NCBI GenBank assembly: GCA_025965695.1
Contig: JAOPWM010000104.1
Coordinates: forward strand, 1-44,279
From: Blastococcus sp.
Lineage (GTDB): Bacteria; Actinomycetota; Actinomycetes; Mycobacteriales; Geodermatophilaceae
Direction of reading: 5' to 3'
DNA length: 44,279 nucleotides
The position numbers and the translations under genes are program-made. Shown piece by piece: positions 12,634-31,188 of the stretch. The number at the start of each line of letters is the position of its first letter. The first letter of the stretch is position 1. The notes below the pieces were generated by a model that saw only the letters and a program-made list of their open reading frames with translations, was not told the origin of the DNA and did no database searches.

Positions 12634-12832
12634 CGGAACTGCACGTCGTCCTGGTCGACCGCTGGATCGTCGACCCGGGCAAGGAAGAACGCCAGAAAGA
12701 TGCTGCGGGTGCGCGCATCGGTCAGCAGGTCGCGGCGTCCACAGATTCCTCCCCGCAGTCGGCAGCAACGGTCGATCCTCCACCGACGGCGGAGTGCATG
12801 ATGCGGGTCACATTCGAGCCGGAGGAGTGCCC
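12634..12832. other. Gap between tetR and acyl-CoA ligase
   Basis: No intact gene is visible. Directly after the tetR stop the plus strand reads ELHVVLVDRWIVDPGKEE, while the minus strand of the same stretch reads RSIFLAFFLARVDDPAVDQ. Either may be a decayed fragment, but I cannot decide which. GGAGGAG at 12821-12827 is the ribosome binding site of the ligase. Confidence 0.3.
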
Positions 12833-14431: not shown

Positions 14432-14479
14432 CGACACTCCGGTTCGAAACGGCGTGTCACCCCGCCGACTTCATGATCG
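14412..14479. terminator. Bidirectional inverted repeat between convergent ligase and patatin genes
   Basis: CGATCATGAAGT (14412-14423) is exactly repeated in inverse orientation at 14468-14479. Inside, GGTGAC (14427-14432) pairs with GTCACC (14456-14461). The structure includes the last codons and stop of the ligase and ends 14 nt before the stop of the leftward patatin. A nearby GACTTC...GAAGTC pair (14467-14488) resembles the CCGGACTT-type gene-end palindromes elsewhere in the window. Confidence 0.6.
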
Positions 14480-14492
14480 TTTCGAAGTCCGG

Positions 14493-15344
14493 TCAGCTGT
14501 TCCAGACGTCGGCGATCCGCTGCGCGACCCGGGCCGCCTGGTCGCGCCCGGCCTTCGCCGAGGGCGCCCGCGCGGCGGGGTCCAGGACGTTGCGGCCGAT
14601 CGCCGTCCGGCTGTCCTTGTCGGGCGAGACGACCGCGACCCGGGAGACCATCCCGGTCACCTGCGCGGCCACGCCGGCCATCGGCCCGACGCCGCGCGAG
14701 ATCGGCGCGAGGACGACGAGCCGGTCGTAGTCGTCGGCGAGATCGGCATTGGCCGCCGACCGCATCCCGCCGTCGACGTACCGACGCCCGTCGATGGTCA
14801 CCGGTGGGTAGACGCCGGGCACCGCGCAGCTGGCCGCCACGGCGTGGACGAGCGGGACGCCGGAGTCGCGGTCGAAGGTCCGGAACGCGCCCGTCTCCGC
14901 GTCGACGGCGGTGATCACAAGCGCCCGGTCCGGCCACTGCGTGCTGACCAGCCGCGCGCCGATGACGTCGAGCCGCTCCTGCTCCGACGGGGTGACGCCG
15001 GCCTTCTCGGCGGCGAGGGCGAGCGCACCGACCCGGCGACGGAACTCGACGTCCTTCCCACGGCTGCGCAGCATCGCCCAGGCGAACTGGGCGAGCGTCG
15101 CCCGGTTGAGCCGCGCCGCCTTCTCCGACGTCGCCGGCTCCAGCTGCCGCTCGTACAGCGCCTCGAGCCCGGCACCGCTGGCCACCTGCGCGCCCACGAC
15201 GGAGCCCGCGGAGGTGCCGACGACGAGGCCGGCCCCGCTCAGGTCGATGCCCCCCTCGGCCAGCCCGGCCAGGAGGCCGATCTCCCAGGCGATGCCGGTG
15301 ATGCCGCCGCCGCCGAGAACGAGTGCGGTGCGCTGGTCACTCAT
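14493..15344 (-). CDS. Patatin-like phospholipase (acyl hydrolase)
   Basis: This 283-residue cytoplasmic protein has the full patatin catalytic set: oxyanion loop GGGGITG (11-17), nucleophile elbow GTSAG (43-47, Ser45) and Asp191 in VDGG (190-193). The TAVDAETGAFRTFDRD segment is typical of bacterial patatins. It should hydrolyse acyl ester bonds in lipids. ATG 15344 has GAGG 8 nt upstream; the longer in-frame start lacks one. It is divergent from an acyl-CoA ligase and could supply fatty acids to the neighbouring CoA ligases. Confidence 0.9.
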   Translation of the reverse strand: MSDQRTALVLGGGGITGIAWEIGLLAGLAEGGIDLSGAGLVVGTSAGSVVGAQVASGAGLEALYERQLEPATSEKAARLNRATLAQFAWAMLRSRGKDVEFRRRVGALALAAEKAGVTPSEQERLDVIGARLVSTQWPDRALVITAVDAETGAFRTFDRDSGVPLVHAVAASCAVPGVYPPVTIDGRRYVDGGMRSAANADLADDYDRLVVLAPISRGVGPMAGVAAQVTGMVSRVAVVSPDKDSRTAIGRNVLDPAARAPSAKAGRDQAARVAQRIADVWNS

Positions 15345-15430
15345 GGCGACATCCTCACAGACACCCCCGGTTATCTCGACAGCGCGTGTGAGCTGAGCCA
15401 CGCTGTGTGTCCGTACCCCCGACGAAGTGG

Positions 15431-17173
15431 ATGCGCATGATCGCCACGCAAGCCCCGACCCCTACCGCCGCCAGCTGGCCGCCCGGGCTCCCCCGGTCGC
15501 TGGAGTACCCCGACGTCCCGGTCGGGTCGATCCTGCGCGCGGCTGCGCGGCGCTGGGGCGAGCGGCCGGCGTTCATCGACCACGACGTCCCGCTCACCTT
15601 CGACGAACTCGGCCGTCGCGCGCACGCGGTCGCCGGCTGGCTGGCCGACCACGGCGTCGGCCGGGGCGACGTCGTGGCGGTGCACATCCCCAACTGCCGG
15701 CAGTACCCGCCGCTCTACTACGGGATTCTGCTGGCCGGGGCCACCTTCTCCCCCACCAACCCGCTGCTGCCGGCGCCCGACCTCGCCGCCCAGCTCACCG
15801 ACGCCGGCGCGAAGGTGCTCATCACCTGGGACCAGGTGCTGCCCTTCGTCCGCGGCGCGCTGGTGCCCACTCCCGTGGAGACGGTCATCGTCACCGGCGA
15901 GGCGCACACCCTCGACTTCGCGGCCCGCCTGGAGCTGGAGGACGGCGACGTCGACGCCGCCGACCTGCTGGCCGCCGACCCCACCGACCGGCACCTGGAC
16001 GCCGCCGTCGACCCAGCCACCGACCTCGCGCACCTGGCCTACACCGGCGGGACGACGGGCGTCAGCAAGGGCGTGGAGCTCCCGCACCGCAACGTCGTCA
16101 CCAACGTGCTCCAGTCGGCGTGCTGGACGTCGGGCTCGCTACCCCAGCTCGACGAGGCCGGCGACGTGACGCTGCGCCAGGTGGTGGGTGAGGACCAGTA
16201 CCCGACCCGGCTCGGCGAGGCCCGGCTGGTGAACCTGACCCCGTGGTTCCACGCGATGGGCGCGATCGGCTACCTCAACGGCATGGTCATGGGCGGCACG
16301 ACCACGGTCATCCACATGCGCTTCGACCCGGTCAAGTACGTCGAGGACGCGGTGAAGCACAAGGTCACCAGCATCGGCGGGGCGCCGCCGGTCTTCGTGG
16401 CGCTGCTGCAGGTGCCGGGCATCGAGGACGCCGACCTGTCCTCGGTCCGCGGCGTCTCCAGCGGCGCGGCGCCGCTGCCGGTGTCCCTGATCGAACGCCT
16501 GAAGACCCTGCTGCCGAACGCCGTCGTCGGCGAGGGCTACGGGCTGACCGAGGTGACCATGCAGGCCACCGGCAATCCGTCCTTCCTGTCCGGCACGCGC
16601 AAGGCCGGCACCGTGGGCGTGCCGGTCTTCGACACCGAGATCTCCATCCGGCCGCTCGGCGGCGGGGACGCGCTGCCGCCCGGCGAGCGGGGCGAGGTGT
16701 GCATCCGCGGACCGCAGGTGATGCGCGGCTACGCCCACCGCCCGGAAGCCACCGCGGAGTCGATCGACGCCGACGGCTGGTTCCACTCCGGTGACGTCGG
16801 GATCCTCGACGAGGACGGCTACCTGTCCATCGTCGACCGCACCAAGGACATGCTGCTCTACAAGGGCTACAACGTCTTCCCGCGCGAACTGGAGGAGATC
16901 CTGTTCGGCGTGCCCGGGGTGGCCGGTGCCGCGGTGGTCGGCCGGCCCGACGAGGAGGCCGGCGAGCTTCCCGTCGCCTACGTCGTCCGCAAGGGCGACG
17001 ACGCAGGGGCCGCGCTGACCGCCGAGTCGGTCATGGCGGCGGTCAACGACAAGGTGACCCCCTACAAGCGGCTGCGCGACGTCGTCTTCATCGACGCGAT
17101 CCCGGTGTCCGCGGCCGGGAAGGTGCTCAAGCGCGAGCTCACCGAGCGCGAGCGGGCAGCGGCCGGCGCCTGA
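15431..17173 (+). CDS. Long-chain fatty acid--CoA ligase-type AMP-binding enzyme
   Basis: This is an ANL-superfamily enzyme of about 580 residues. Motifs: [19 protein letters not shown] (ATP loop), [64 protein letters not shown] and [11 protein letters not shown] with the C-terminal catalytic Lys. It is distinct from the first ligase, with a longer N-terminus and an insertion around [18 protein letters not shown]. The start is uncertain: ATG 15431, ATG 15437 and GTG 15407 are in frame and none has a good Shine-Dalgarno sequence. Substrate unknown; context suggests fatty or cyclic carboxylic acids. Confidence 0.9.
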
Positions 17174-19375: not shown

Positions 19376-20404
19376 GTGGACAGCGAGAGGAGCGGACCCG
19401 AGACCGAGCACACCGGGGTCCGGCTGGCCCATCAGGAGGAGTCGCCCGTCCGGCAGGTGTGGCGCCGCGTCCTCATCGCCGCCGCCCTCCTCGCCTTCAC
19501 CGTGGCGGTCATCTACCTCGACCGCGACGGCTACCGGGACGGCGACAACGTCGGACTCTCCCTGCTCGACTCGGTCTACTACGCGACCGTCACCCTCTCC
19601 ACGACCGGCTACGGCGACATCACGCCGATCACTCCGGGCGCACGGCTGGTCAACATCCTGCTGATCACCCCGCTGCGCATCACGTTCCTGCTGGTCCTCA
19701 TCGGAACCACCCTGGAGGCGCTCACCGCGCGCTCCCGGGAGGAGTTCCAGATCCGACGCTGGAGGTCCCGCGTGCGCCAGCACGTCATCGTGTGCGGTTA
19801 CGGCACCAAGGGCCGCAGCGCCATCCGCTCGCTGCAGGCCCTCGGCACGCCACTGGACAAGATCGTCGTCGTCGACCCCGAGCCGCGGGCCATCGACGAG
19901 GCCAACTCCCTCGGGCTCACCGGGATCGTCGGTGACGCCGGCCGCACCGAGGTGCTCCGGCGGGCCTCGGTGGAACGCGCCCGCGCGGTCATCGTCGCGG
20001 CCAACCGGGACGACGCCGCGGTGCTGATCACGTTGACGGTGCGGCAGCTCAACCCGAGCGTGCCGATCACGACCAGCGTGCGCGAGGAGGAGAACGCCAA
20101 CCTGCTCCGGCAGTCCGGCGCCGACACGGTCATCACCACCTCGGCGACGTCCGGCCGGCTGCTCGGCCTCTCCACCGACGCGCCGCGCGTGGTGGCCGTC
20201 GTCGAGGATCTCGTGACCGGGGGCCAGGGCCTGGACCTGCACCAGCGCCGGGTGACCTCCAGCGAGGTCGGCCTGGACTCGCGTTCCTTGCGGGACATCG
20301 TCCTCTCGGTCACCCGGGGTGGACGCACGCTGCGCTTCGACGACCCGCTGATCGGCACACTGCAGCCGGAAGACGACCTCGTCGTCGTCCGCTCCCACCA
20401 CTGA
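19376..20404 (+). CDS. Two-TM potassium channel with TrkA-N/TrkA-C (RCK) domain
   Basis: This 342-residue protein has TM1 at about 33-48, a pore helix and the selectivity filter TTGYGD (76-81), and TM2 at about 92-112. A cytosolic RCK domain starts HVIVCGYGTKGRSAI (136-150) with the GxGxxG nucleotide-binding loop, and a TrkA-C-like part follows (about 265-342). It should be a ligand-gated K+ channel of the MthK/TrkA-N type. GTG 19376 is assigned because it sits before the first TM region; a clear Shine-Dalgarno is lacking. It follows the APC transporter after 77 nt on the same strand, suggesting joint ion homeostasis. Confidence 0.92.
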   Translation: MDSERSGPETEHTGVRLAHQEESPVRQVWRRVLIAAALLAFTVAVIYLDRDGYRDGDNVGLSLLDSVYYATVTLSTTGYGDITPITPGARLVNILLITPLRITFLLVLIGTTLEALTARSREEFQIRRWRSRVRQHVIVCGYGTKGRSAIRSLQALGTPLDKIVVVDPEPRAIDEANSLGLTGIVGDAGRTEVLRRASVERARAVIVAANRDDAAVLITLTVRQLNPSVPITTSVREEENANLLRQSGADTVITTSATSGRLLGLSTDAPRVVAVVEDLVTGGQGLDLHQRRVTSSEVGLDSRSLRDIVLSVTRGGRTLRFDDPLIGTLQPEDDLVVVRSHH

Positions 20405-20412
20405 CCCCCCTC

Positions 20413-20468
20413 GGACTTTCGGCGCCGAAAGTCCGGTAGGAGGTCCGGACTTTCGGCGCCGAAAGTCC
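20413..20468. repeat. Pair of perfect 22-bp palindromic elements at a convergent gene end
   Basis: Two perfect copies of GGACTTTCGGC plus its reverse complement occur at 20413-20434 and 20447-20468, each followed by CGGTAG. They fill the 78-bp gap between the rightward potassium channel gene and the leftward haem peroxidase gene. Spacing between copies is 34 nt, as at 4881-4936. Confidence 0.9.
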
Positions 20469-20482
20469 GGTAGAGGCGAGGG

Positions 20483-22399
20483 TCAGGCGGTCACGCGTTT
20501 CCAGGGGGCGAAGGCGTTGTCGCTCTGCCGCAATGCCGGCCGCAACTCGGGGAAGTGCCGCAGCAGCACCGTGCGCATGTCGTTGTCCCGGATCCAGTTC
20601 AGCCCGGTCGGCGAGTAGACCTCCGGTCGGAAGTCCTTCGTGAAGAACCGGTCGCTGTTGAGCCGGCGGGACGCCATCAGGATGAAGATGCGGAACGCGG
20701 TGTCGCTGAACGCGAAGCCGGTCGGCCGCTTCTCCGCGAACAGCCCCACCATCAGGTCGACCTTCTCGACGTCGCCGTAGAGATCCTCCATGTCCCTCGC
20801 GAGGCCGGCGTCGTCGGTCAGCTCGGCGAACGAGGCCGGTGCAAGCAGGTGCATCTGCCGGCGGAACTCGCAGTACCGGGGGACGCCGAGCTCGCGGATC
20901 CGGACCAGGTCGGTGGACGCCAGGTCCATCTTCTTCCCGTCCGGCCGCTCGTACTCCTGCAGGAACCTCGGGTAGTTGCGCAGCACGATCGCGCCGGGGT
21001 TCGTGGTCCCGAACGAGTAGAAGAGATCGCCGAGGGAGTACGTCGCGAAGATCTCCTTCGAGTGCGGGCCGGCCAGCTTCCGGAAGCCCAACTGCGCCAG
21101 CGGGCGGTCGCCGTCCGCCGTCCGGAAGTCGAAGTCGTCCGGCAGCAGCGGGTGCATCCGGTAGACGCTGGTGAACTCCTCGGTGAGCGAGAACGGGACG
21201 CCGTAGTGCTCGGTCTCGGCGCCCGGGATGCCGCTGATCACCTCGCTGGTGCTGATCCGCCCGAACGCACGGGCGATCCGCTCCCCCGCGACGCCGAACC
21301 AGTTGGCCCGCAGCGCGAACACGGTGGTCGGGTGGCTGATGATCGCCGGCGTCCACTCGACGGTGTGGATCTTGGCGAGCAGGGCCGAGACCACCAGCCG
21401 GGCCCGCTGGAACAGCTCCTCGTCGTCCCAGTGCGGGTATTCCTGCGCCAGCCGCTCACAGACCGCGTTGTGCTCGCGCGCGAAGAGGGTGAGAAGCATC
21501 GCCATGCCGGTCCACCATCCGGGCCTCATGGTGGGGTCGAGCGCGGGATCGTCGGGGATGGGGATCTGGCCGTCCTCGGTGAGCCGCAGCCGGCCACCCT
21601 CGCCGGCACGCACCCGGCGCTGCTCCTCCAAGGACGAGCCGTACAGCGACGAGCCGTCCCACCAGTGGGTCACGTCGTTGACCGTGGTGACGGGTCCCTC
21701 CGCCCCCTCCGGCCGGGTGGGGTCGACCTTGATCCGCGGGATGCGCATCGGGTTCTCCCACCAGGTGTCCCCCGGCCTCAGCGGGATGTCCACCAGGCGC
21801 GAGGTGTCGCCCTCCCCGTGGGTGAACCAGTCGCGGATCATGAACTGCAACCACGCCGCGGCCAGGGTGTTCACGCTCTCCGCCGGCAGGAACGGGTCGC
21901 GGGTGAGCAGCCGCCGGCTGACCTCGCGGGGGTTGGGCTCCATCAGCTGCTCGCGGGTCACCGGCAGCACCTGGTCCAGCGGGATGTTGCGGCCGAACCG
22001 GGCGCCGGCCCGGCCCATGTCCGGGTGGTCGAGGTCGTTGTAGGTGCCGTCGACGCTGCGAGCGACCAGGTGCTGCGGCGTCCGCTCCGGCACCCGCGGC
22101 GCATCGACGATCGGCACCACCGTCGACGGGTCGTGCAGGTTGTTCTGCCGGAGGATCGTGCGCACGCCGATCAGGACGGCGAGGCCCGCGGGCAGGGGCA
22201 GTTTGTCCCAGCCGCGCCGGTGGTCGATCGCCTGCGCGACCCAGTCGTAGATCCGCCAGAAGGGCGTCCGCCGGTAGTCCGCTCCTGGGACCGGCGGCGG
22301 CGCCGCCGGTAGCGCGCTCCGGGGATGCCCGTCGGAGTCGACGCGCGGCTGCGGTACGGACGCGGAGGTGCTGGTCTGTCCTGGGGTCTCGGTGCTCAT
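20483..22399 (-). CDS. Animal-type haem peroxidase, cyclooxygenase/alpha-dioxygenase-like
   Basis: The protein has 638 residues. Visible features: WLQFMIRDWFTH with a likely distal haem His194 (aligning with the FTH of cyclooxygenases), HWWDGSSLYGSS (245-256), LTLFAREHNAVCERL (303-317) and KIHTVEWTPAII. TEEFTSVYRMHPLLPDDF holds Tyr413 and proximal His416, spaced as Tyr385/His388 in COX-2. Presence of that Tyr suggests fatty-acid oxygenation rather than plain peroxidase activity. There is no signal peptide. Its ATG overlaps the stop of the GMC oxidoreductase by 4 nt, so the two are translationally coupled. The substrate is not known, and homologous bacterial proteins are often labelled simply 'peroxidase'. 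Confidence 0.88.
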   Translation of the reverse strand: MSTETPGQTSTSASVPQPRVDSDGHPRSALPAAPPPVPGADYRRTPFWRIYDWVAQAIDHRRGWDKLPLPAGLAVLIGVRTILRQNNLHDPSTVVPIVDAPRVPERTPQHLVARSVDGTYNDLDHPDMGRAGARFGRNIPLDQVLPVTREQLMEPNPREVSRRLLTRDPFLPAESVNTLAAAWLQFMIRDWFTHGEGDTSRLVDIPLRPGDTWWENPMRIPRIKVDPTRPEGAEGPVTTVNDVTHWWDGSSLYGSSLEEQRRVRAGEGGRLRLTEDGQIPIPDDPALDPTMRPGWWTGMAMLLTLFAREHNAVCERLAQEYPHWDDEELFQRARLVVSALLAKIHTVEWTPAIISHPTTVFALRANWFGVAGERIARAFGRISTSEVISGIPGAETEHYGVPFSLTEEFTSVYRMHPLLPDDFDFRTADGDRPLAQLGFRKLAGPHSKEIFATYSLGDLFYSFGTTNPGAIVLRNYPRFLQEYERPDGKKMDLASTDLVRIRELGVPRYCEFRRQMHLLAPASFAELTDDAGLARDMEDLYGDVEKVDLMVGLFAEKRPTGFAFSDTAFRIFILMASRRLNSDRFFTKDFRPEVYSPTGLNWIRDNDMRTVLLRHFPELRPALRQSDNAFAPWKRVTA

Positions 22400-24429
22400 C
22401 GGGTCTCCTGAACGGCGGTCGAGCGGGAGGGCTTGCGCGGACGGGGCAGCAGAGCGAGGACGTGCCGCAGATCGGGCCGCTTGGAGACCGATGACGGCGC
22501 CGCCGCGGGAGCCGCGGCGTCCTGCGCCGCTGCGTCGGCCAGGATCGCGGCGCTGGCCTTCTCGGCCGCCATGTAGATCGCGGTGACGATGAAGAACCCG
22601 GGGATGCGCGGGAACACCGAGGCGTCGACGACGCGCAGCCCCTGCGTGCCGTGCACCCGGAAGTCACTCCCGACGACGGCCCGCGGGTCGGTGGCCGGCC
22701 CCATCGCGCAGGTGCACGAGGCGTGGTGCCCCCACGCCTGGTCGCGGACGAAGGACCGCAGCTTCTCGCGGGTGTCCGCGGCCGGACCCGGCATCAGCTC
22801 GGCAGCCACGTCGTCCTCGAGGCAGGCCATGATGGACCGGGCCACCTCGATGCCGGTGACCACCGCGTCGAGGTCCTCCCCCGCGGTGTCGCTGCCCTCG
22901 TCGAAGTAGCGGAACCGGATGTCGGGGGGATCGCGCGGATCGGCCGACCGCAGCAGGACGCTGCCGGCGCTGTTGACCGTGTGCGCCTTGAGGATCGCCC
23001 AGGTGAAGACGTCGGACTGCTGGGCGAGCGCGCCGGAGTAGCCGGGGAAGTATCCGGTGAACCGGGCCGGCAGACCGAAGATGAACAGGTCGGGGCTGGT
23101 CAGCTCGGGGCGGGAGCGGCGGATGATCCCCAGCAGCGCCCCGTTGGTCGTGTACACGCCCTCGCCGTCCTGCCACTGGCGATAGCCGGGGTCGGGCTCC
23201 TCCCCCTCGCCCGGCGGCCGGAACGTCAGGCCGTCGAGCAGGGCGAAGTTACGCCGCATCTGGCTGACGACGCCGACCTCGTAGCGGTCCTGCAGGTTCT
23301 CCCCGACGCCCGGCCGGTCCCGGCGGCAGGGGATCCCGAGCCGGTCCAGCTCGGCCCGCGGCCCGATGCCGGAGAGCTTCAGCAGCTGCGGGGTGTTGAA
23401 CGCGCCCCCGGCGAGGATCACCTCGCGACGGGCCCGGACCCGGACCGCTGCCGGTGGTTCCCCGGCGACCGCGGCGGGGTCGGCCCGGTAGGCGTGCGGC
23501 TGGGCCAGGTACTCCACGCCGGTGGCGACCGGATCCCCGTCCGGGGTCGGGGGATCGTCGAACAGCACCCGGGTGACCAGGGCTCCGGTGCGCACCTCGA
23601 GCCGGTCGGGCCGCCGCTGTTCGACGTCCCGGATCCGTTCCCGGGCCCCGTTGCGCCTCCCCGTGCGCACTGCGAGCGGAATCAGCCAGAGCCCCTCGGG
23701 CAGCGTGCGTGCCCGCCAGTCGTTCGGGTCGACCGCGCTGTTGAGCCCCTCGAACGGGGTGAGCGGGCGGTGCAGGAAGTCCGCGAGGTTGCGCGCCGCG
23801 GCCGACTTGATCACCGAGATGACCTGTGTGTCGCCGAGGGCCAGCGCGGGGTCGGCGAGGTTCGTGTGCAGCCAGCCGTCGAAGCCGTGCCGGCTGCGGT
23901 TGACGTACTTATCACTCACGAGCGGCAGCGCCGCCAGCAGCCGGGCCAGCCACGGGTGCCGCGGCAGCATCCGGGGACGGCGCTTGTACTGACAGGCCTC
24001 CAGCCGCTCGAACCACTGGCGCATCTGCGTCGCCCGCCAGCTCGGGTCGCCGGTGGCCGCGGCGATGCCGTCCCAGTCGGCGTCGTGCGGGTAGACGGTG
24101 ATCATGGCGTTGTGGGCCGTGCAGCCACCGAGCGTGCCCGAGCGCGGGTACAGGACGCCGTCCCGCTCGGGCACGAACTTCCCGTCCCGCTCCTGCTGGG
24201 CACGGTCGTCGAAGTGGCGGACGTAGAGGGGCCAGCTCATCCCGGGGTGCTCGCTCGCGCGGCCGTGGAAGGCGGGCACCCGGTAGTCGTCGTCCTCCGG
24301 GTCCAGCCCGGCCTCCAGCAGCAGCACCCGGTGGCCGGCGTCGGCCAGGTTCGCTGCGACGGGGCCGCCCCCGGCGCCGGAGCCGACGACGATGTAGTCG
24401 AAGATCTCGGCGCCGATCGGGGCGGTCAC
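22396..24429 (-). CDS. GMC-family FAD oxidoreductase
   Basis: This 677-residue protein has the N-terminal FAD dinucleotide fold [21 protein letters not shown] with GSGAGG at 16-21, [22 protein letters not shown] (GMC signature 1 region) and [22 protein letters not shown] (signature 2). C-terminal [12 protein letters not shown] carries the catalytic His pair at 568-569. The second catalytic His/Asn position is in an unusual [19 protein letters not shown] context. It probably oxidises an alcohol or hydroxy-lipid with O2 or another acceptor. A Pro/Ala-rich tail (about 625-677) follows the domain. The GTG start overlaps the stop of the upstream membrane protein (GTGA). Confidence 0.92.
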
Positions 24430-24824
24430 GGCCGGCTCCTCCGCGCGGCCAGGTACGCGGTCACCGCCAGCACGGTGTTCAGCCCCGAGATCAGCGCGAG
24501 GGGACGGGCACGCTCCGGGGACAACTGCTTGTTGCGCTGGAGGCCCAGCACCGTCGCGGTGTCAGTGGCGTGGATGATCGGCGCGGCCCAGAGCGCCCGG
24601 TCGAGGTCGCGGCCGCGCAGCCGGATCAGGTCGGCCCCGATGAGCACAGTCCGGATCCCGAACAGCCGCAGCCCGTAGATCGCGGCAGGGTTGGCGGTGG
24701 GGTTGCTGTCGCCGAAGCGACTGATGATCATCGCGGGGGCCAGCAGGCCTGTCGTGCCGGCGATGATGCGGACGCCGCCGAGAGCGAAGCGGGCCGTTTT
24801 CCCGATGGTTGCGATGGCCGACAC
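24426..24824 (-). CDS. Small membrane-associated protein of unknown function
   Basis: A 132-residue protein with about three to four moderately hydrophobic helices: FALGGVRIIAGTTGLLAPAMII, IYGLRLFGIRTVLIGADLI, ALWAAPIIHATDTATVLGL and LISGLNTVLAVTAYLAARR. I cannot assign a family with confidence; it resembles small DUF4267-like membrane proteins. GTG 24824 has GGGAGGA upstream. It leads the leftward operon with the GMC oxidoreductase and haem peroxidase through overlapping stop/start codons, so it may anchor or assist these enzymes at the membrane. That is inference from context. Confidence 0.75.
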   Translation of the reverse strand: MSAIATIGKTARFALGGVRIIAGTTGLLAPAMIISRFGDSNPTANPAAIYGLRLFGIRTVLIGADLIRLRGRDLDRALWAAPIIHATDTATVLGLQRNKQLSPERARPLALISGLNTVLAVTAYLAARRSRP

Positions 24825-25477
24825 TGCGGTCCTCCCCGCCCGGCCCCGCGCCGGGCGAAATCATCGGAGGAGTGGGCGCACGGCGCACATTCGACGCGGA
24901 AGAGAAATGCAGTTCACCGTCGACGGACGTGCACTGATCCCCGGTCACCGGCAGGCACCGGTTCGACTTCCCCCTGAATGAATGGCGCACCGGATTCTCG
25001 ATCCGGCGGCGCCCAGATTCCTCCCGCCCCAGCATGATCACAAGGGGGTCGCCCGCCGTTGCCCAGAATTTGCGGACGATCCTGCCGGCGGTCAGGGGAG
25101 GCTGTCCGCGGCCCTCATCGGGGCTCCGTCCCGGCCGATCGGGCGGGCGACGTCGGGGCCGGCGAGGTAGTCCTGGCTCGTGTGCCGGACGCTGGGGTTG
25201 ACGCTCCGCTCCCCCTGCAGCGGCGCGGCGGAGCGGTTGAGCCAGTGCGTCGACGAGGTCGTCGGCCACCACCGTGCCCAGGCTCCGGCCCTCCGCACGT
25301 CGGCGACGACCAGGGGCCGCACGCCTTGACAGGAAATGGTGGCGCGTGGACGCTGCTCGGTCATAGCCGGGCAAAAACTCCGAATGCGCCAAGGCCCGTC
25401 GCCGACAGCAATTCCTGTCCTCATTCAGCTGAATTCCGGCAGCACGGCACGCGCGCGATCCGCACCGAGGGGGACCC
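24825..25477. other. 653-bp divergent control region between the two oxidation/lipase operons
   Basis: The region separates the leftward operon (starting 24824) from the rightward one (starting 25478). A 7-bp GCCCGGC/GCCGGGC hairpin lies at 24838-24856, in the leader of the leftward operon. A TTGACA occurs at 25326-25331 without a convincing -10. The stretch 25375-25440 is relatively AT-rich and holds a perfect 12-bp palindrome ATTCAGCTGAAT (25423-25434), about 44 nt before the rightward start, a possible operator. A small ORF is listed separately. No regulator gene is located in this gap. Confidence 0.5.
25092..25364 (-). CDS. Possible small hypothetical protein or gene remnant
   Basis: This 90-codon ORF (MTEQRPRATISCQG... 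to ...APMRAADSLP) has almost exclusively G/C at third positions over its last 50 codons, for example SVNPSVRHTSQDYLAGPDV, which suggests real coding history. The first 35 codons look less coding-like, and a neighbouring frame (GTVVADDLVDALAQPLRRA) also looks protein-like, so it may be a frameshifted remnant. No family recognised and no clear ribosome binding site. Confidence 0.3.
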   Translation of the reverse strand: MTEQRPRATISCQGVRPLVVADVRRAGAWARWWPTTSSTHWLNRSAAPLQGERSVNPSVRHTSQDYLAGPDVARPIGRDGAPMRAADSLP

Positions 25478-25936
25478 ATGGGAGGCGTCCACGTCCGCGC
25501 CCACGGCGCGGTGCCCCCGGAACGGTTCGTCGCGGCGCTCACCGACTTCGGTCCCGGGCGCGAGGAGATCTTCGGCGAGAGCGATCCACGCAACCTCACC
25601 GTTCATGACCGCGGTGAGACGTGGGCCGAGGTCACCGAGGGATCCGGCGCGGGCCGTGTCTGGCAGCGGTTGCGCTACGACTGGTCGGTGCCCGACGTGG
25701 TCACCCTCGACGTGCTCGACAGCAACGCCTTCGGCCCGGGGAGCCGCTGGACCTACCGGGTGGAGTCCGACGGCGCGGGTGGCTGCCACGTCGATCTCAC
25801 GATCGTGCGGGTGCCGACGACGACGAAGGGCCGGGTGCTCGACGTCCCGCTGGGCCTCGGCGGCGGCGCCTACTTCGGCCGCGATCTGCGGCGGTCACTG
25901 CGCCGCCTGGAGAGCCGGTCGCGGACGCCGTCCTAG
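25478..25936 (+). CDS. SRPBCC/START-like ligand-binding protein
   Basis: This 152-residue protein fits the helix-grip (SRPBCC) fold: an N-terminal strand VHVRAHGAVPPERFVAALTDFG, a central run of beta strands (ETWAEVTEG, VWQRLRYDWSVPDVVTLDVLDSNAFGPGSRWTYRVE, CHVDLTIVRVP) and a C-terminal helix (GRDLRRSLRRLESR). Such proteins bind hydrophobic ligands such as lipids or polyketides. GGGGGA precedes the ATG. It opens the rightward four-gene operon that ends in a patatin, and could carry the lipid product or substrate. Confidence 0.75.
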   Translation: MGGVHVRAHGAVPPERFVAALTDFGPGREEIFGESDPRNLTVHDRGETWAEVTEGSGAGRVWQRLRYDWSVPDVVTLDVLDSNAFGPGSRWTYRVESDGAGGCHVDLTIVRVPTTTKGRVLDVPLGLGGGAYFGRDLRRSLRRLESRSRTPS

Positions 25937-25995
25937 ACCCTGTTGCCGCCCTGCGGGGACGGCCGATCCCGACCACCACCGACCAGGGGAACAGC

Positions 25996-27558
25996 GTGGC
26001 CGACCACAACGACCCGAACTCGGTCAACAGCATCTTCTCCGACGTCGACGTGAGCGCCGCCGACGTCTACGACATGTTCGGCTATCCCAGCGACGCCACC
26101 GACGAGGAGAAGGTGGTGCTCGCGCTGACCTTCGCCGCCGTTCCCGAGGCGGGCGTGTTCGACACCGACATGCTGTACCGGCTGCTGGTCAACCCGCACG
26201 CGCGCTCGGTGCGCCCGGCGGCGGAGGACTGGAGCCTGCCCGCGCTGACCCGCTACTTCGACGCGAGGAAGGACCACTACCTCGGTCAGCGCGACGCGGC
26301 GGAGATCCGGGTGACGGTGGACGGGGGCGGGACGGCCACGGTCCGCTTCACCGGCTTTCCCGGCGGCGACTTCACCCAGCAGGTCCCGACGAACGAGGTC
26401 ACGACCGTCCGGTCGCCGTCCGGCACGGAGGTCACCGCCTACCTGGGCGGCCGCGACGACGCCTTCTTCAACGACCTGACCGGGTTCTTCCGCTCGATCA
26501 ACTACGCCCCACAGTTCTACGAGGTGCCACAGGCGCGGCAGGACGTGCGTGAACTGCCGATCCCGAAGACGTTCCTGGAGCTCGACGGGAACACCCTCTT
26601 CAACGTCAACCCCGACATCCCCGAGCACGGCCGCGGCGTGAAGCTGGACCTCCCCGAGGGACCGCTCACCTGGGAGGGCGACAGCTTCGCCAAGGACGCC
26701 GACGGCAACTACCGGTTCGTCTACAGCGGCGAGGACGCCCAGGCCGGGAAGAACGTCAACGCGATCGTCCTGGAGGTCCCGCTCCGCTTCCTGACCGCGG
26801 ACCCGGACGAGGACCGGGTGGTCAACGTGTGGGGCGAGAGCTGGGTCCGCAAGGCGGCGGCGAAGATCGAGACCATCCCGGACGACCCGCTCTGGACGGA
26901 GAACCCGGTCGCCCTCCTCCGCCGGCGCCGCCTGGACGACGAGCTCCGGCAGTACAAGCTGGTGGACACCGTGGGCCAGCCGTTCGCCGACGCGGGCCTG
27001 AGCGAACGGGAGGACAACCGGCAGCTGGGGGCCAACAACTTCTGGCTGGCCCCGGCGTTCGTCCGCCGCCTCGCCCACCTGGGCTGGGGCTTCGGCCCGT
27101 CGGTGACCGCGCTCGGGCTGGCCAGCGTCTTCGACCACGACGGGGCGCCCGTGTCGGTGCACAAGACGTACTCGACCGCCGCCGCGGCCTTTCCACGCTG
27201 CCGGAAGCTGATCTTCCAGGAACTGCGGATGCCCGACGACTCCTGGAAGAGGTCGAACGTCGACATCCCGCTGCGCCGGCCGTTCGAGATCTTCATCCCG
27301 AACGTCTGCGCGATCGACATGGACACCACCGGCACGTGGCCGTTCGGCCGCCGACCGGAGGACCAGGTCGCCACCCGGTTCCTGTCGATGTTCCTCGACA
27401 TGGCCGCGCCGCTCGGGCCGGGCGGTTACTCGGTGGAGACCCTGAACGACCAGGCACTGTGGGACGCCGCCCCTATCACGCCGAAGACACCGCCCAACCC
27501 GCTGACCAACGACAAGCCGTTCCTGACGACGTTCCCCTATCTGGCCGAGCCGTGGTGA
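25996..27558 (+). CDS. DUF4331-like protein of unknown function
   Basis: The protein has 520 residues and starts MADHNDPNSVNSIFSDVDVSAADVYDMFGYP. It continues VLALTFAAVPEAGVFDTDMLYRLLVNP and ends with a GRRPEDQVATRFLSMFLDM...PLTNDKPFLTTFPYLAEP segment; these are like DUF4331 proteins (initial DHxDPxxxx, later GRRPxDD). The enclosed MDTTGTWPFGRRPEDQ is conserved-looking. There is no signal peptide, whereas many DUF4331 proteins are exported. GTG 25996 is preceded by AGGGGA. The product of the next gene starts in its stop codon (GTGA). No reaction can be proposed from sequence; the family assignment itself is moderate. Confidence 0.7.
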   Translation: MADHNDPNSVNSIFSDVDVSAADVYDMFGYPSDATDEEKVVLALTFAAVPEAGVFDTDMLYRLLVNPHARSVRPAAEDWSLPALTRYFDARKDHYLGQRDAAEIRVTVDGGGTATVRFTGFPGGDFTQQVPTNEVTTVRSPSGTEVTAYLGGRDDAFFNDLTGFFRSINYAPQFYEVPQARQDVRELPIPKTFLELDGNTLFNVNPDIPEHGRGVKLDLPEGPLTWEGDSFAKDADGNYRFVYSGEDAQAGKNVNAIVLEVPLRFLTADPDEDRVVNVWGESWVRKAAAKIETIPDDPLWTENPVALLRRRRLDDELRQYKLVDTVGQPFADAGLSEREDNRQLGANNFWLAPAFVRRLAHLGWGFGPSVTALGLASVFDHDGAPVSVHKTYSTAAAAFPRCRKLIFQELRMPDDSWKRSNVDIPLRRPFEIFIPNVCAIDMDTTGTWPFGRRPEDQVATRFLSMFLDMAAPLGPGGYSVETLNDQALWDAAPITPKTPPNPLTNDKPFLTTFPYLAEPW

Positions 27559-28667
27559 ACGCGCTGCTGGCGTCCCCAGTCGGCTTCTCGGCCGACCTGG
27601 CGGCGGTCAGCCGCCGACGGGCCGAGCGGGAGGCCACGGCCGACCCGGCCAGCCCGTCGGCGGCCGGCGAGGTGCTGACGCTGCGCCACCGCGAGGTGAT
27701 GCTCACCGGTGGCCGGCCGGAGGAACTGCTGGCCCTCGGCGCCGCGGTGGACCGGGCCGTGGAGCGCTTCCCCGCATGGCCGGACCTGCGCATCCTCCGG
27801 GGCGGCCTCGCCCTGGCGGTGCACCGGCCCGACGTCGCCGCCGCGGCGCTGGATGCGGTGCCGGGACTGGCCTCAGTGCCTCCGGGCCGCGTGCTGGCCG
27901 CGGACATCGCACAGTTCGCCGGCGACTACCCGGCGGCGAGGGCGGGCTACCGGAAGGCCGCCCGGGAGGACCCGCTCTGGGACACCACGGCCCGGCTGGC
28001 GGCGCTGGCGCTCGCGACGGGCGCGTGCGACGAGGCCGACGCCCTGTACGCCGCGGCCGAGGACGACATCACCGCCAAGCAGATGCGCGCTTTCGCCTGG
28101 GTCCGCGTGCAGCGCGCCGACCTCGCGCTGGCGCTGGGCGACCTCGACCGGGCCGGCCGGCTGCTCGCCGACGCCGGGCGCGCCTATCCGGACTGGTGGT
28201 ACGTCGCCGCCCACCTCGCCGCCCTGGACGCCGTGTCGGGCCGGCCGGAGCGGGCGGTGGCCGGGTACCGGAGCGTCCTCGCCGACGTCGACCGGCCGGA
28301 GTTCCGGGAAGCCCTCGGCACCGTCCTGCAGGCCACCGGCGACACCGACGGCGCGGCCGCGTGCCACGCGGCGGCCCTGTCGGCCTACCTCGCCTCGGTC
28401 GCCCGGGGCGAGGTCCACTACCTCCACCACCTGGCTGCCTTCCACGCCGACGTCCGCCCACACGCCGGGGCGGCTGTCGCCTGGGCGCGACAGGACGCGG
28501 AGCTGCACCGCAGCGGCACGACGCTGTCACTGCTGGCCTGGTGCCTGCACCGGGCCGGCCGCCGCGACGAGGCGCTGGCCGTGGTCGAGGAGGCGTTCGC
28601 GCTCGGCGCCGGAGATCCGCGGCTGCAGTCGCGGGCCCGCGAGATCAGAAAGGGTGGACAGACATGA
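27555..28667 (+). CDS. TPR-type repeat protein
   Basis: This 370-residue protein is rich in Ala, Leu and Arg with helix-turn-helix repeats of about 34 residues. Examples are PPGRVLAADIAQFAGDYPAARAGYRKAAREDP, AFAWVRVQRADLALALGDLDRAGRLLADAGRAYP, WWYVAAHLAALDAVSGRPERAVAGYRSVLADV and EALGTVLQATGDTDGAAACHAAALSAY. These are tetratricopeptide-like and usually mediate protein contacts. The GTG start at 27555 overlaps the stop of the DUF4331-like gene, and its stop overlaps the ATG of the patatin, so the three products are made together. It may be a scaffold for the patatin or the oxidative enzymes. Confidence 0.82.
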   Translation: MNALLASPVGFSADLAAVSRRRAEREATADPASPSAAGEVLTLRHREVMLTGGRPEELLALGAAVDRAVERFPAWPDLRILRGGLALAVHRPDVAAAALDAVPGLASVPPGRVLAADIAQFAGDYPAARAGYRKAAREDPLWDTTARLAALALATGACDEADALYAAAEDDITAKQMRAFAWVRVQRADLALALGDLDRAGRLLADAGRAYPDWWYVAAHLAALDAVSGRPERAVAGYRSVLADVDRPEFREALGTVLQATGDTDGAAACHAAALSAYLASVARGEVHYLHHLAAFHADVRPHAGAAVAWARQDAELHRSGTTLSLLAWCLHRAGRRDEALAVVEEAFALGAGDPRLQSRAREIRKGGQT

Positions 28668-29656
28668 CGATCACCGACACCGGCCGGCCGGCGGACCTCG
28701 TTCTGGAGGGCGGTGGCGTCAAGGGCCTGGGCACCGCGGGCGCCGTCATGGGCCTGCTCGACGCCGGGTGGACCTTTCCTCGCGTCGCCGGAACCTCGGT
28801 GGGCGCCCTGGCCGCCGCCTTCGCCGCGGCGGGCGCCGACTCCGCCACCTTCGGCGACGTGCTCCGCCGCCTGGACCTCCGGCGGATCCCCGACCGTCGC
28901 GTCCCCCTGCCGCTGATCAGCGAAGGCGTCTCGCTGTTCGTGGGGCGCGGCGCCTACGCCGGGGACTGGATCCACCAATGGCTCACCCGCGAGCTCGAGG
29001 GGCTCGGCGTCCGCACCTTCGCCGACCTCCGCCGCGACGACCCGGGCGCCGACCCGGCACTGAGCACCCCCGACCACCGCTACAAGCTGGTCGTCATGGC
29101 CACCGACGTCACCAACGGCCGGCTGCTGCGGCTGCCGTGGGACTACCCGCGGTTCGGCCTGGACCCCGACGAGCAGCTCGTCGCCGACGCCGTCCGGATG
29201 TCGCTGTCGATCCCGTTCTACTTCGAGCCCCGCACCCTGCGGAACCCGGTCACCGGCGACGAGGCGACGATCGTCGACGGCGGGGTGCTCTCCAACTTCG
29301 CCATCGAGATCTTCGATCGCACCGACGGCCTCGAGCCGCGCTGGCCCACCTTCGGCGTCCGGCTGCTGCCCGACCTGCCGGCCGGACTCGGCGACCTCGT
29401 GCCGTTCTTCGGACTGCCGATGTTCCCGCCGGTCCGGCTGCTGGAGCAGGTGGTGGCCACCGCCCTGGTGGGGCGGGACCAGACGCACCTGGAACGGCCG
29501 GGCGTGCGGGAACGGACGATGGCGGTCGACACCCGGGGGACGTCGATCACCGAGTTCGGGATCGGCGCCGAGAAGCGCCGCGCGCTCATCGGCCGGGGCA
29601 GGCAGGCCGCCCGGGAGTTCCTCCGCAGCCGGGAGCAGGAGCTCGTCGGCAGCTGA
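28664..29656 (+). CDS. Patatin-like phospholipase
   Basis: This 330-residue protein has oxyanion loop GGGVKG (16-21), nucleophile elbow GTSVG (43-47, Ser45) and Asp206 in IVDGGVLSNF. The catalytic dyad is complete. VVMATDVTNGRLLRLPWDYPRFGL and SLSIPFYFEP are typical patatin segments. Unlike the other patatin in this window, it has an insertion with LPLISEGVSLFVGRGAYAGDWIHQWL. It should release fatty acids from phospholipids or related esters. ATG 28664 overlaps the TPR gene stop. Its coupling to the SRPBCC/DUF4331/TPR genes and divergence from a COX-like oxygenase are notable. Confidence 0.92.
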   Translation: MTITDTGRPADLVLEGGGVKGLGTAGAVMGLLDAGWTFPRVAGTSVGALAAAFAAAGADSATFGDVLRRLDLRRIPDRRVPLPLISEGVSLFVGRGAYAGDWIHQWLTRELEGLGVRTFADLRRDDPGADPALSTPDHRYKLVVMATDVTNGRLLRLPWDYPRFGLDPDEQLVADAVRMSLSIPFYFEPRTLRNPVTGDEATIVDGGVLSNFAIEIFDRTDGLEPRWPTFGVRLLPDLPAGLGDLVPFFGLPMFPPVRLLEQVVATALVGRDQTHLERPGVRERTMAVDTRGTSITEFGIGAEKRRALIGRGRQAAREFLRSREQELVGS

Positions 29657-29661
29657 GCGGG

Positions 29662-31188
29662 TCAGGCGACGCGGCGCACCCAGGTGGGGGTGGAGACGTC
29701 GCGGCCGCGCAGCTCCACCTCGCCGTCGCGCACCCAGTGCGCGCGCTCGTCCGGATCGGCCGCGAGCACGGTCGCCTCGCTGGCCACCGCCCGGCCGGGG
29801 TGCTCCTTCGCCAGCTCGGTGAGCCGGGCCGCCTCGTTCACCGGGTCGCCGATCACCGTGTACTCCAGCCGGCTGGCCGCGCCCACCTGCCCGGCCCACA
29901 CCCGCCCGCAGGCGACGCCCACCCCGACGTCCACCTCGCCGGCGGCACGGACGGCGTCGCCGATGCGGCGGGCCGCCCGGAGTGCGGCGCCGGCCGCGTC
30001 CGCGTGATCGGTCGGTGCGCCGAAGACGCAGAGCGCGGCGTCGCCCTCGAACTTGTTGACCAGACCGCCCTCCTCCTCGATCGTCTCGACGACGACCTGG
30101 AAGAAGCGGTTGAGCAGGCCCACCATCTGCTCCGGGCCGGTGCGCCGGACCAGCGAGGTGGAGCCGGCGATGTCGACGAACAGCGCGGCGACGGTGCGTT
30201 CCTCCCCACCCAGGGAGACGCCGGTGGCGAGGGCCCGGTCGGCGACCGTCGTCCCGACGTGACGGCCGAACAGGTCGCGCAGCCGCTCCCGTTCGGCCAG
30301 GCCGGCCGCCATCGTGTTGACCCCTTCTTGGAGGAGCCCGATCTCCCCTGCATCGTCGACGACGACGCTGACCTCGTAGTCCCCGCGCGCGACCCGTCCC
30401 ACGGCCTGCCGCAGATCGCGCAGCGGCTGCCCGACGGCGCGGGCGATGAGCAGCGTGGCCAGGCCCCCGACCAGCAGGGCGACGACCACGAGGAAGACGA
30501 CCGCGGCCTCCCCGGGCCCGTCGGGATTGCTCGGATCCACGAACAGCAGGACGACGCCGAGCATCGGCACCGCACTCGTCAGTCCCCAGGTGAGCAGCAG
30601 GCGCGGCCGGACCCCGAGGGTGAGCGCGCCCGCGGGCGGGTGCGCGGCCAGCGCGACGGCCGTGACGGCGCGCGCGGCACGGGCGACCAGCAGATAGGTG
30701 ACCCCGGCGGTCGCGATGCCCCCGAGCAGGGTGGCGATCCCGGTGCGCAGTCCCACGCGGGCATCGGGGAAGGCGACGGTGGAGACGATCCCGATGAGGA
30801 CGGCGCCGACCGCCCACACGATGCCGGCGATCAGGGCGGTGTCGACCGGCAGCCGCAGCGCGTAGGTGGCCTCGGCGCTCGTGGGTTCCCGACCGGCCAT
30901 CAGCCACCGGTTGGTGACCCGCTGGCGGCGCAGTCCGACGAGCGTGGCCGTGGGCAGGGCGACCACGAGGTAGCCGGCGACGGCCAGGAGGACCGCGGTG
31001 CGCGCATGGTCACCGCCGCCGTCGGAGACGCCGACCAGGAGCAGCGTGACGGTGGCGACCCCGACCAGGTTGGCGACGAGCACCAGCAGCACGATCGCCG
31101 GGACGGCGATGCGTCCGCTCGGCGCCCAGGAGGCCCAGACGCCGTCGCGGCGGACCGTCTCCGGGGCGCTGTCCCCGTCGACCCTCAT
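29662..31188 (-). CDS. Class III adenylyl cyclase with membrane region and HAMP domain
   Basis: The protein has 508 residues. Six hydrophobic helices occupy about 25-250, followed by a HAMP linker (about 245-300, AVGQPLRDLRQAVGRVARGDYEV) and a class III cyclase domain (about 325-508). Metal-binding Asp339 (ALFVDIAGST) and Asp383 (NKFEGDA) are present. Lys379 and Asp448 (VIGDPVN) indicate ATP specificity, and Asn451/Arg455 (PVNEAARL) are the transition-state residues. The layout matches the actinobacterial Rv1318c-type cyclases. It makes cAMP in response to a membrane or osmotic signal. Its stop is 5 nt from the convergent patatin. Confidence 0.93.
   Translation of the reverse strand: MRVDGDSAPETVRRDGVWASWAPSGRIAVPAIVLLVLVANLVGVATVTLLLVGVSDGGGDHARTAVLLAVAGYLVVALPTATLVGLRRQRVTNRWLMAGREPTSAEATYALRLPVDTALIAGIVWAVGAVLIGIVSTVAFPDARVGLRTGIATLLGGIATAGVTYLLVARAARAVTAVALAAHPPAGALTLGVRPRLLLTWGLTSAVPMLGVVLLFVDPSNPDGPGEAAVVFLVVVALLVGGLATLLIARAVGQPLRDLRQAVGRVARGDYEVSVVVDDAGEIGLLQEGVNTMAAGLAERERLRDLFGRHVGTTVADRALATGVSLGGEERTVAALFVDIAGSTSLVRRTGPEQMVGLLNRFFQVVVETIEEEGGLVNKFEGDAALCVFGAPTDHADAAGAALRAARRIGDAVRAAGEVDVGVGVACGRVWAGQVGAASRLEYTVIGDPVNEAARLTELAKEHPGRAVASEATVLAADPDERAHWVRDGEVELRGRDVSTPTWVRRVA

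What the first reader, a model, noticed from the sequence alone, without database searches (positions are those of the whole stretch)
20483..29656. Divergent two-operon locus that may form a bacterial oxylipin-type or peroxide-coupled lipid oxidation system
Seen: the leftward operon (membrane protein, GMC oxidoreductase, COX-like haem peroxidase) and the rightward operon (SRPBCC, DUF4331-like, TPR, patatin) have 4-nt stop/start overlaps at almost every junction (24426-24429, 22396-22399, 27555-27558, 28664-28667) and share a 653-bp control region. Known: patatins release fatty acids; COX/alpha-dioxygenase enzymes oxygenate them; GMC enzymes oxidise alcohols and may make H2O2; SRPBCC proteins carry hydrophobic ligands. 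Inference: a pathway from membrane lipid to oxidised fatty acid, or an oxidase feeding peroxide to the peroxidase. I know of no described system with this gene set.
Basis: partly seen in the sequence, partly recalled or inferred. Interest (0 to 1): 0.75.

Follow-up and report, generated by a model that had tools for sequence, protein, structure and literature searches.

The report
Bacterial fatty-acid alpha-oxidation gene locus
A soil actinobacterium carries a seven-gene block, present or absent as a unit among its relatives, built around a bacterial cousin of the plant enzyme that adds oxygen to fatty acids, which suggests that some bacteria make oxidised-lipid compounds much as plants do.

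Summary
In detail: two divergent operons, 4-nt overlaps at four of five junctions, a 653-bp gap, in an apparent Blastococcus draft genome. The haem enzyme is a nearly full-length relative of plant fatty-acid alpha-dioxygenase (E 4e-115). Catalytic Tyr, proximal His and both carboxylate-binding residues are kept, but the distal His is Arg (CGC; CAC in a sister species). In 5 of 8 Blastococcus genomes lacking the block the flanking genes lie 58-256 bp apart. The small membrane protein was found in 13 of 112 family genomes, at 14 places, all within 2.2 kb of the dioxygenase. Membrane protein, GMC and dioxygenase recur together in 13 non-Blastococcus loci among the 80 closest; patatin near dioxygenase in 2 (window type) and 4 (another type). 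Against: the right operon was seen only in Blastococcus; in 33 class-wide places window-type GMC and patatin were never near the dioxygenase; my prediction that the two nearest outside patatins are dioxygenase-linked failed; the GMC enzyme lacks the usual second catalytic residue. Best reading: patatin frees fatty acids, the dioxygenase alpha-oxidises them, GMC processes a product. I found no description of this gene context; chemistry is untested.

The parts
20483..22399 (-). DOX: alpha-dioxygenase-family haem enzyme, 638 aa
   Evidence: phmmer to fatty acid alpha-oxidase 4kvj E 3.9e-115, residues 54-634; Pfam An_peroxidase 2e-104
21833..21835 (-). codon 189 (CGC, Arg) at the place of the distal haem His (rice H157)
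   Evidence: CAC (His) in L048
21161..21163 (-). catalytic Tyr413 (rice Y379)
   Evidence: alignment; role from PMC8720084
21152..21154 (-). proximal haem ligand His416 (rice H382)
   Evidence: alignment; role from PMC8720084
21365..21367 (-). His345 (rice H311), binds the fatty-acid carboxylate
   Evidence: alignment; role
20663..20665 (-). Arg579 (rice R559), binds the fatty-acid carboxylate
   Evidence: alignment; role
22396..24429 (-). GMC flavoenzyme, 677 aa
   Evidence: Pfam GMC_oxred_N/C; nearest solved structure fatty acid photodecarboxylase 5ncc E 3.5e-44
24426..24824 (-). MEM: small membrane protein, 132 aa, DUF4267-like below cut-off
   Evidence: 13 of 112 family genomes, 14 places, all within 2.2 kb of DOX; membrane nature read from the sequence
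24825..25477 (.). divergent control region, 653 bp
   Evidence: no sigma-70-type site found by the scan; holds extra genes in L046 and L049
25478..25936 (+). SRPBCC/START-fold protein, 152 aa
   Evidence: fold model pLDDT 59 and Foldseek matches
25996..27558 (+). DUF4331-like protein, 520 aa
   Evidence: Pfam DUF4331 9.4e-15; start chosen and relatives
27555..28667 (+). TPR-repeat protein, 370 aa
   Evidence: Pfam TPR_19 3.9e-7
28664..29656 (+). patatin-like lipase, 330 aa, with GGGxKG, GTSVG and DGG motifs
   Evidence: Pfam Patatin 6.4e-27; motifs read in the sequence, their meaning recalled

Best explanation
The locus is an accessory lipid alpha-oxidation module. The patatin releases free fatty acids from membrane lipids. 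The alpha-dioxygenase, held at the membrane together with the small membrane protein, adds O2 at C-alpha to give the 2-hydroperoxy acid, which becomes the one-carbon-shorter fatty aldehyde or the 2-hydroxy acid. The GMC flavoenzyme oxidises one of the resulting alcohols or aldehydes. The SRPBCC protein probably carries the hydrophobic intermediate; the DUF4331 and TPR proteins are accessory (roles unknown). Shown: family membership, the other active-site residues, presence/absence as a block, recurrent association of MEM and GMC with DOX. Inferred: every chemical step, the order of steps and the membrane partnership.
For: DOX aligns with plant alpha-DOX over residues 54-634 and keeps Tyr, proximal His and the His311/Arg559/Thr316 equivalents. 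Block presence/absence. DOX and patatin orthologue in the same 8 of 16 Blastococcus genomes. MEM in 13 of 112 family genomes, all among the 20 with DOX, 14 of 14 places within 2.2 kb of DOX (hypergeometric 2e-12, kinship not corrected). Among the 80 closest DOX loci MEM is near in 47 (41 upstream on the same strand), window-type GMC in 19 (13 not Blastococcus, one of them only a partial GMC), all 19 with MEM. Window-type patatin directly downstream of DOX in Streptomyces fulvoviolaceus and Amycolatopsis acidicola (L053, L055); four loci (L052, L054, L056, L062) have near DOX another patatin, a second GMC type, an alpha/beta-hydrolase-like and an acetoacetate-decarboxylase-like protein (families scanned on L052, others by similarity). 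G005 keeps only MEM, DOX and patatin of the seven.
Against: Distal His is Arg in the window copy. The right operon was seen only in Blastococcus. In 33 class-wide DOX places none has window-type GMC or patatin within 6 kb (several of these stretches are cut by contig ends). Across 394 class genomes patatin homologues (42) and DOX (28) share only 5 genomes including the window's own, about 3 expected (overlap counted by me from the tables; each search scored only the best few candidates per genome). The two nearest outside patatins (66%) are not within 9 kb of DOX. G009 has a frame-broken DOX and a shortened SRPBCC gene; G008, G009 and G005 lack DUF4331; G005 lacks GMC, SRPBCC and TPR. No aldehyde dehydrogenase lies in the block.
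Confidence: 0.55

Rival explanations
1. Peroxide-coupled variant: the GMC enzyme is an oxidase whose H2O2 starts or feeds the haem enzyme.
For: Plant alpha-DOX needs peroxide to make its Tyr radical (PMC9305512 section 3.1). GMC of either type (26 of 80 loci) and DyP peroxidase (19 of 80) are never near the same DOX (Fisher 1.9e-4), as if they filled one slot; the loci are related, so this is weak.
Against: The second catalytic residue of GMC oxidases (recalled: His or Asn) is Val or Ala in all 19 aligned rows. The distal His is Arg. Starter amounts of peroxide should need no dedicated oxidase (inference).
Confidence: 0.12
2. The distal-Arg enzyme is no longer an alpha-dioxygenase but a haem peroxidase or hydroperoxide-converting enzyme, in the way that Arg serves as distal residue in other haem families (recalled).
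For: Arg at the distal place in 65 of 85 DOX rows, His 17, Lys 2, Asn 1; DyP genes near 19 of 80 and catalase-like genes near 16 of 80.
Against: His311, Arg559, Thr316 and Tyr379 equivalents are kept. Within Blastococcus six full-length DOX copies and one partial copy have His, against Arg in the window and in the broken G009 copy, so one base change inside one species group would have to switch function. PMC8720084 reports the distal His as only partially conserved among alpha-DOX sequences.
Confidence: 0.2
3. The two operons are neighbours that share a control region but work apart: the left makes oxidised fatty acids, the right (SRPBCC-DUF4331-TPR-patatin) does lipid turnover or envelope work.
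For: The right operon was found with DOX only in Blastococcus; 3 of 8 DOX genomes lack DUF4331; close patatin relatives exist without DOX.
Against: Presence and absence as one block between the same two flanks; window-type patatin beside DOX in two other genera.
Confidence: 0.2

Closest known systems
Plant fatty-acid alpha-dioxygenase (4kvj/4kvk, rice by PMC9305512; 4hhr, recalled as Arabidopsis) and the alpha-oxidation pathway
   Same: Nearly full-length homology; Tyr, proximal His, His311, Arg559, Thr316 equivalents
   Different: Distal His is Arg; bacterial gene block with GMC, patatin, membrane and SRPBCC proteins; no aldehyde dehydrogenase in the block
Cyanobacterial alpha-DOX (CalDOX, LepDOX, CsDOX)
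   Same: Bacterial members with shown activity on medium-chain fatty acids (PMC8720084: abstract, passages and part 1 of the discussion; PMC9305512: abstract, sections 3.1 and 3.2)
   Different: CalDOX and LepDOX keep the distal His; the parts I read name no gene neighbourhood
Fatty acid photodecarboxylase and other GMC enzymes
   Same: GMC family; photodecarboxylase is the best solved-structure hit
   Different: The two residues that I recall as essential (Cys432, Arg451) are Ala and Phe in the alignment
Patatin-like phospholipases (PlpD, ExoU, VipD; CBASS phospholipase models)
   Same: Patatin domain and motifs
   Different: Far below the curated cut-offs of the NCBIfam models for CBASS, anti-phage and T4SS patatins; different neighbours
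Catalase-like/alpha-DOX fusions and DyP/catalase-like alpha-DOX clusters of other bacteria (this work)
   Same: Homologous DOX
   Different: The window block has neither catalase-like nor DyP gene; GMC and patatin instead

Membership tests
Fatty-acid alpha-dioxygenase | Nearly full-length homology to characterised enzymes | tested here: met
   E 3.9e-115 to 4kvj, residues 54-634 of 638
Fatty-acid alpha-dioxygenase | Catalytic Tyr and proximal His | tested here: met
   Tyr413 and His416 in TSVYRMH
Fatty-acid alpha-dioxygenase | Carboxylate-binding His311 and Arg559, Thr316 | tested here: met
   His345, Arg579, Thr350 (roles)
Canonical (distal-His) alpha-dioxygenase | Distal haem His (rice H157) | tested here: not met
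   Arg189 in the window. Filed as a member of the sequence family, where PMC8720084 calls this residue partially conserved, not as a canonical distal-His enzyme
Fatty-acid alpha-dioxygenase | Forms 2-hydroperoxy acids from fatty acids | not testable with these tools
   needs an enzyme assay
GMC oxidoreductase family | N-terminal and C-terminal GMC domains | tested here: met
   PF00732 3e-17, PF05199 6e-30
Classical GMC alcohol/choline oxidase | Catalytic His plus second His/Asn (pair recalled) | tested here: not met
   His in GHHA kept; second place Val/Ala in all 19 aligned rows
Fatty acid photodecarboxylase | Cys432 and Arg451 (recalled) | tested here: not met
   Ala and Phe in those columns
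MftG (mycofactocin-linked GMC) | NCBIfam TIGR03970 cut-off 387.45 bits | tested here: not met
   127.9 bits
Patatin-like lipase | Patatin domain over the gathering score; oxyanion, Ser and Asp motifs | tested here: met
   95.4 vs 27.7 bits; motifs read in the sequence
SRPBCC/START fold | beta-alpha-alpha-beta6-alpha helix-grip fold | tested here: met
   weak model, pLDDT 59, but topology and Foldseek matches agree

The most novel reading that the evidence does not exclude
A large, mostly actinobacterial branch of the cyclooxygenase/alpha-dioxygenase superfamily works with Arg in place of the distal haem His, together with a dedicated small membrane protein, and takes exchangeable redox partners (GMC flavoenzyme, or DyP peroxidase plus catalase-like protein) and lipases: a modular bacterial oxylipin system with its own way of starting the Tyr radical.
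Probability: 0.25. Interest if true: 0.75.

Novelty: new variant of a known kind. Interest (0 to 1): 0.55.

Why it matters
Alpha-oxidation of fatty acids is known from plants; [quoted passage not shown] Gene contexts like these name candidate partners (lipase, flavoenzyme, membrane protein, DyP, catalase-like protein) and so make a bacterial oxylipin pathway directly testable. The natural His/Arg difference at the distal haem place between sister species offers a clean test of how the Tyr radical of the COX/alpha-DOX superfamily is started.

Tried and rejected
DOX fold model: pLDDT 36, discarded. Fatty acid photodecarboxylase for the GMC gene: key residues absent. CBASS/anti-phage patatin: scores far below cut-offs. 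Patatin tree: with unlinked copies from Geodermatophilaceae only, DOX-linked and unlinked patatins split cleanly; I then expected the two closest outside patatins (G167, G450, 66%) to sit by a DOX, and they do not, nor are these genomes among the 28 with DOX; with them included the linked set is 8 of the 10 rows of one supported branch. Catalase-like neighbours: the stand-alone proteins gave no hit in Pfam or, as a profile, in the PDB; they were tied to catalases only through the fused copy. Sigma-70 promoter and terminator scan: nothing above chance. Literature: ten searches of an open-access library; from their listings I found no paper on alpha-DOX gene neighbourhoods in actinobacteria (DUF4331: 0 papers; alpha-dioxygenase with GMC oxidoreductase: 0 papers). 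Subscription journals are mostly not held. Papers opened: PMC8720084 (abstract, passages, discussion part 1), PMC9305512 (abstract, two sections), PMC4420034 and PMC4334559 (passages); all others were seen as listings.

Full report
What is there. Two divergent operons fill 20483-29656 between a potassium-channel-like gene (19376-20404, +) and an adenylate/guanylate-cyclase-like gene (29662-31188, -), both pointing into the block. The seven genes show purifying selection against relatives.

The block is a unit. Of 16 genus genomes 8 have DOX (E<=1e-20) and the same 8 have the patatin orthologue (E<=1e-30). In the 8 without it, the channel and cyclase genes are 58, 78, 83, 134 and 256 bp apart in five, 1.5 and 1.7 kb apart in two, and one contig ends (distances from aligned ends). 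Among 9 Blastococcus DOX loci (window plus 8 in 7 other genomes, three of them cut by contig ends) the divergent layout with the SRPBCC gene is seen in 8 (shortened in G009). G008 and G009 lack the DUF4331 gene, G009 has a frame-broken DOX, and G005 keeps only MEM, DOX and patatin with a GMC remnant. L046 and L049 (the same places as L029 and L027) have extra genes between the arms: a trypsin-like gene in L046 and a gene with a sub-threshold alpha/beta-hydrolase hit in L049; a second extra gene in L046 was not identified.

The haem enzyme. It matches the plant alpha-dioxygenases 4kvj and 4hhr over nearly its whole length at E 4e-115 and 3e-111, far above lactoperoxidase (best 2e-25) and prostaglandin synthases (best 2e-19). 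Reading that alignment with the roles given in PMC8720084 (discussion, part 1): Tyr379 = Tyr413, H382 = His416, H311 = His345, T316 = Thr350, R559 = Arg579, F375 = Phe409, F552 = Phe572 are kept; the distal H157 is Arg189. The codon is CGC in the window and CAC in L048. In 85 DOX rows (79 of 80 loci, one partial dropped, plus five family rows and the window; the broken G009 gene left out) the distal residue is Arg in 65, His in 17, Lys in 2, Asn in 1, with 7 changes for Arg on the tree, at least 6 forced by supported branches. In 33 class-wide places it is His in 19, Arg in 9, Lys in 4, unread in 1. PMC8720084 already says that the distal His is partially conserved.

Neighbours elsewhere. MEM was found in 13 of 112 family genomes (E<=1e-8), all among the 20 with DOX, and its 14 places lie within 2.2 kb of DOX. 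In the best 80 of 268 relatives (the closest ones, a biased set; 60 of 80 have 7.5 kb held on both sides), counting within 7.5 kb, MEM is near DOX in 47, window-type GMC in 19 (13 outside Blastococcus: 11 Streptomyces, one of them with a partial GMC, an Acidimicrobiaceae MAG with MEM downstream, and Virgisporangium with a 2.9-kb gap), DyP-like peroxidase in 19 (family confirmed, 8re3 E 2e-76), catalase-like protein in 16, window-type patatin in 6 (2 outside Blastococcus), another patatin in 4, a second GMC type (which I call cholesterol-oxidase-like from memory) in 7; at least one of these or of the unnamed F1 family is near in 59, none in 21. GMC of either type and DyP never coincide (26 and 19 of 80, Fisher 1.9e-4, kinship not corrected). 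In the class sample, which overlaps the 80 in part and has several contig-cut stretches, MEM is near in 9 of 33 (within 6 kb), catalase-like in 11, DyP in 4, second-type GMC plus second-type patatin in 2, window-type GMC and patatin in 0.

Catalase-like partners. In six Geodermatophilaceae genomes (L039-L044) DOX lies in single open frames of 921-961 aa; the two that I scanned (L039, L041) carry an N-terminal catalase-like domain (Pfam Catalase 2.8e-7 and 4.3e-7; L039 nearest solved structure 3e4w, 6e-12). The stand-alone catalase-like neighbours are homologous to it (hhalign 99.2%). This points to hydroperoxide handling as a common partner function of bacterial DOX (inference), but the window block has no such gene.

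Results against my reading. The right operon is known here only from Blastococcus; the DUF4331 protein has no homologue at E<=1e-8 in 393 other class genomes (best few candidates scored per genome), although the DUF4331 family itself is common (56 of 296 phylum genomes). Patatin and DOX share 5 genomes of 394 including the window's own (42 and 28 positives, about 3 expected). The expectation about the two nearest outside patatins failed. The GMC enzyme lacks the usual second catalytic residue in all 19 aligned rows.

Mechanism. Most likely: patatin frees fatty acids; DOX makes 2-hydroperoxy acids and from them Cn-1 aldehydes or 2-hydroxy acids (chemistry as described for plant and cyanobacterial enzymes in PMC9305512 sections 3.1-3.2, and for plant enzymes in PMC4334559 passages); the GMC enzyme oxidises a product; MEM holds or serves DOX at the membrane; the SRPBCC protein carries a hydrophobic intermediate. 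Family membership and association are shown; all chemistry is inferred.

Noticed in passing
L039-L044 (unnamed Geodermatophilaceae genomes), e.g. L039:11976-14777: Single open frames of 921-961 aa holding DOX; in the two scanned (L039, L041) an N-terminal catalase-like domain is fused to a distal-His alpha-dioxygenase domain, which looks like a hydroperoxide-making and hydroperoxide-converting pair in one protein. Five class-wide places (L241-L245) have the same domain directly upstream on the same strand, in open frames of 960-1120 aa.
   Followed up: partly
L058:11788-16020, L063:5027-9419, L096:4913-9481 and others: A recurrent set of an unnamed F1 family, DyP-type peroxidase and often a catalase-like protein and MEM beside DOX in Amycolatopsis, Streptomyces, Modestobacter and Ktedonobacter loci; the F1 copies scanned have no Pfam or NCBIfam hit.
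   Followed up: partly
window 20412-20473 and 4881-4936: A paired palindrome GGACTTTCGGCGCCGAAAGTCC, copies about 34 bp apart; 62 sites in this genome at up to 2 mismatches against 0 for the reversed control; exact copies in 1 of the 161 loci then held, and that one is of this genome.
   Followed up: partly
window 12827-17173: By eye, a second patatin-like gene (14493-15344) and two acyl-CoA-ligase-like genes lie within 8 kb of the block, beyond a transporter-like gene and the channel gene; the nearer ligase lies beside the channel gene in 6 of 8 genomes without the block. Not scanned against families.
   Followed up: no
L115:9965-13243: In Streptomyces sp. DHE7-1 the DOX frame seems to run, by a frame change near its end, into a stretch that I read by eye as trypsin-like; a trypsin-like gene also sits between the arms in L046.
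   Followed up: no
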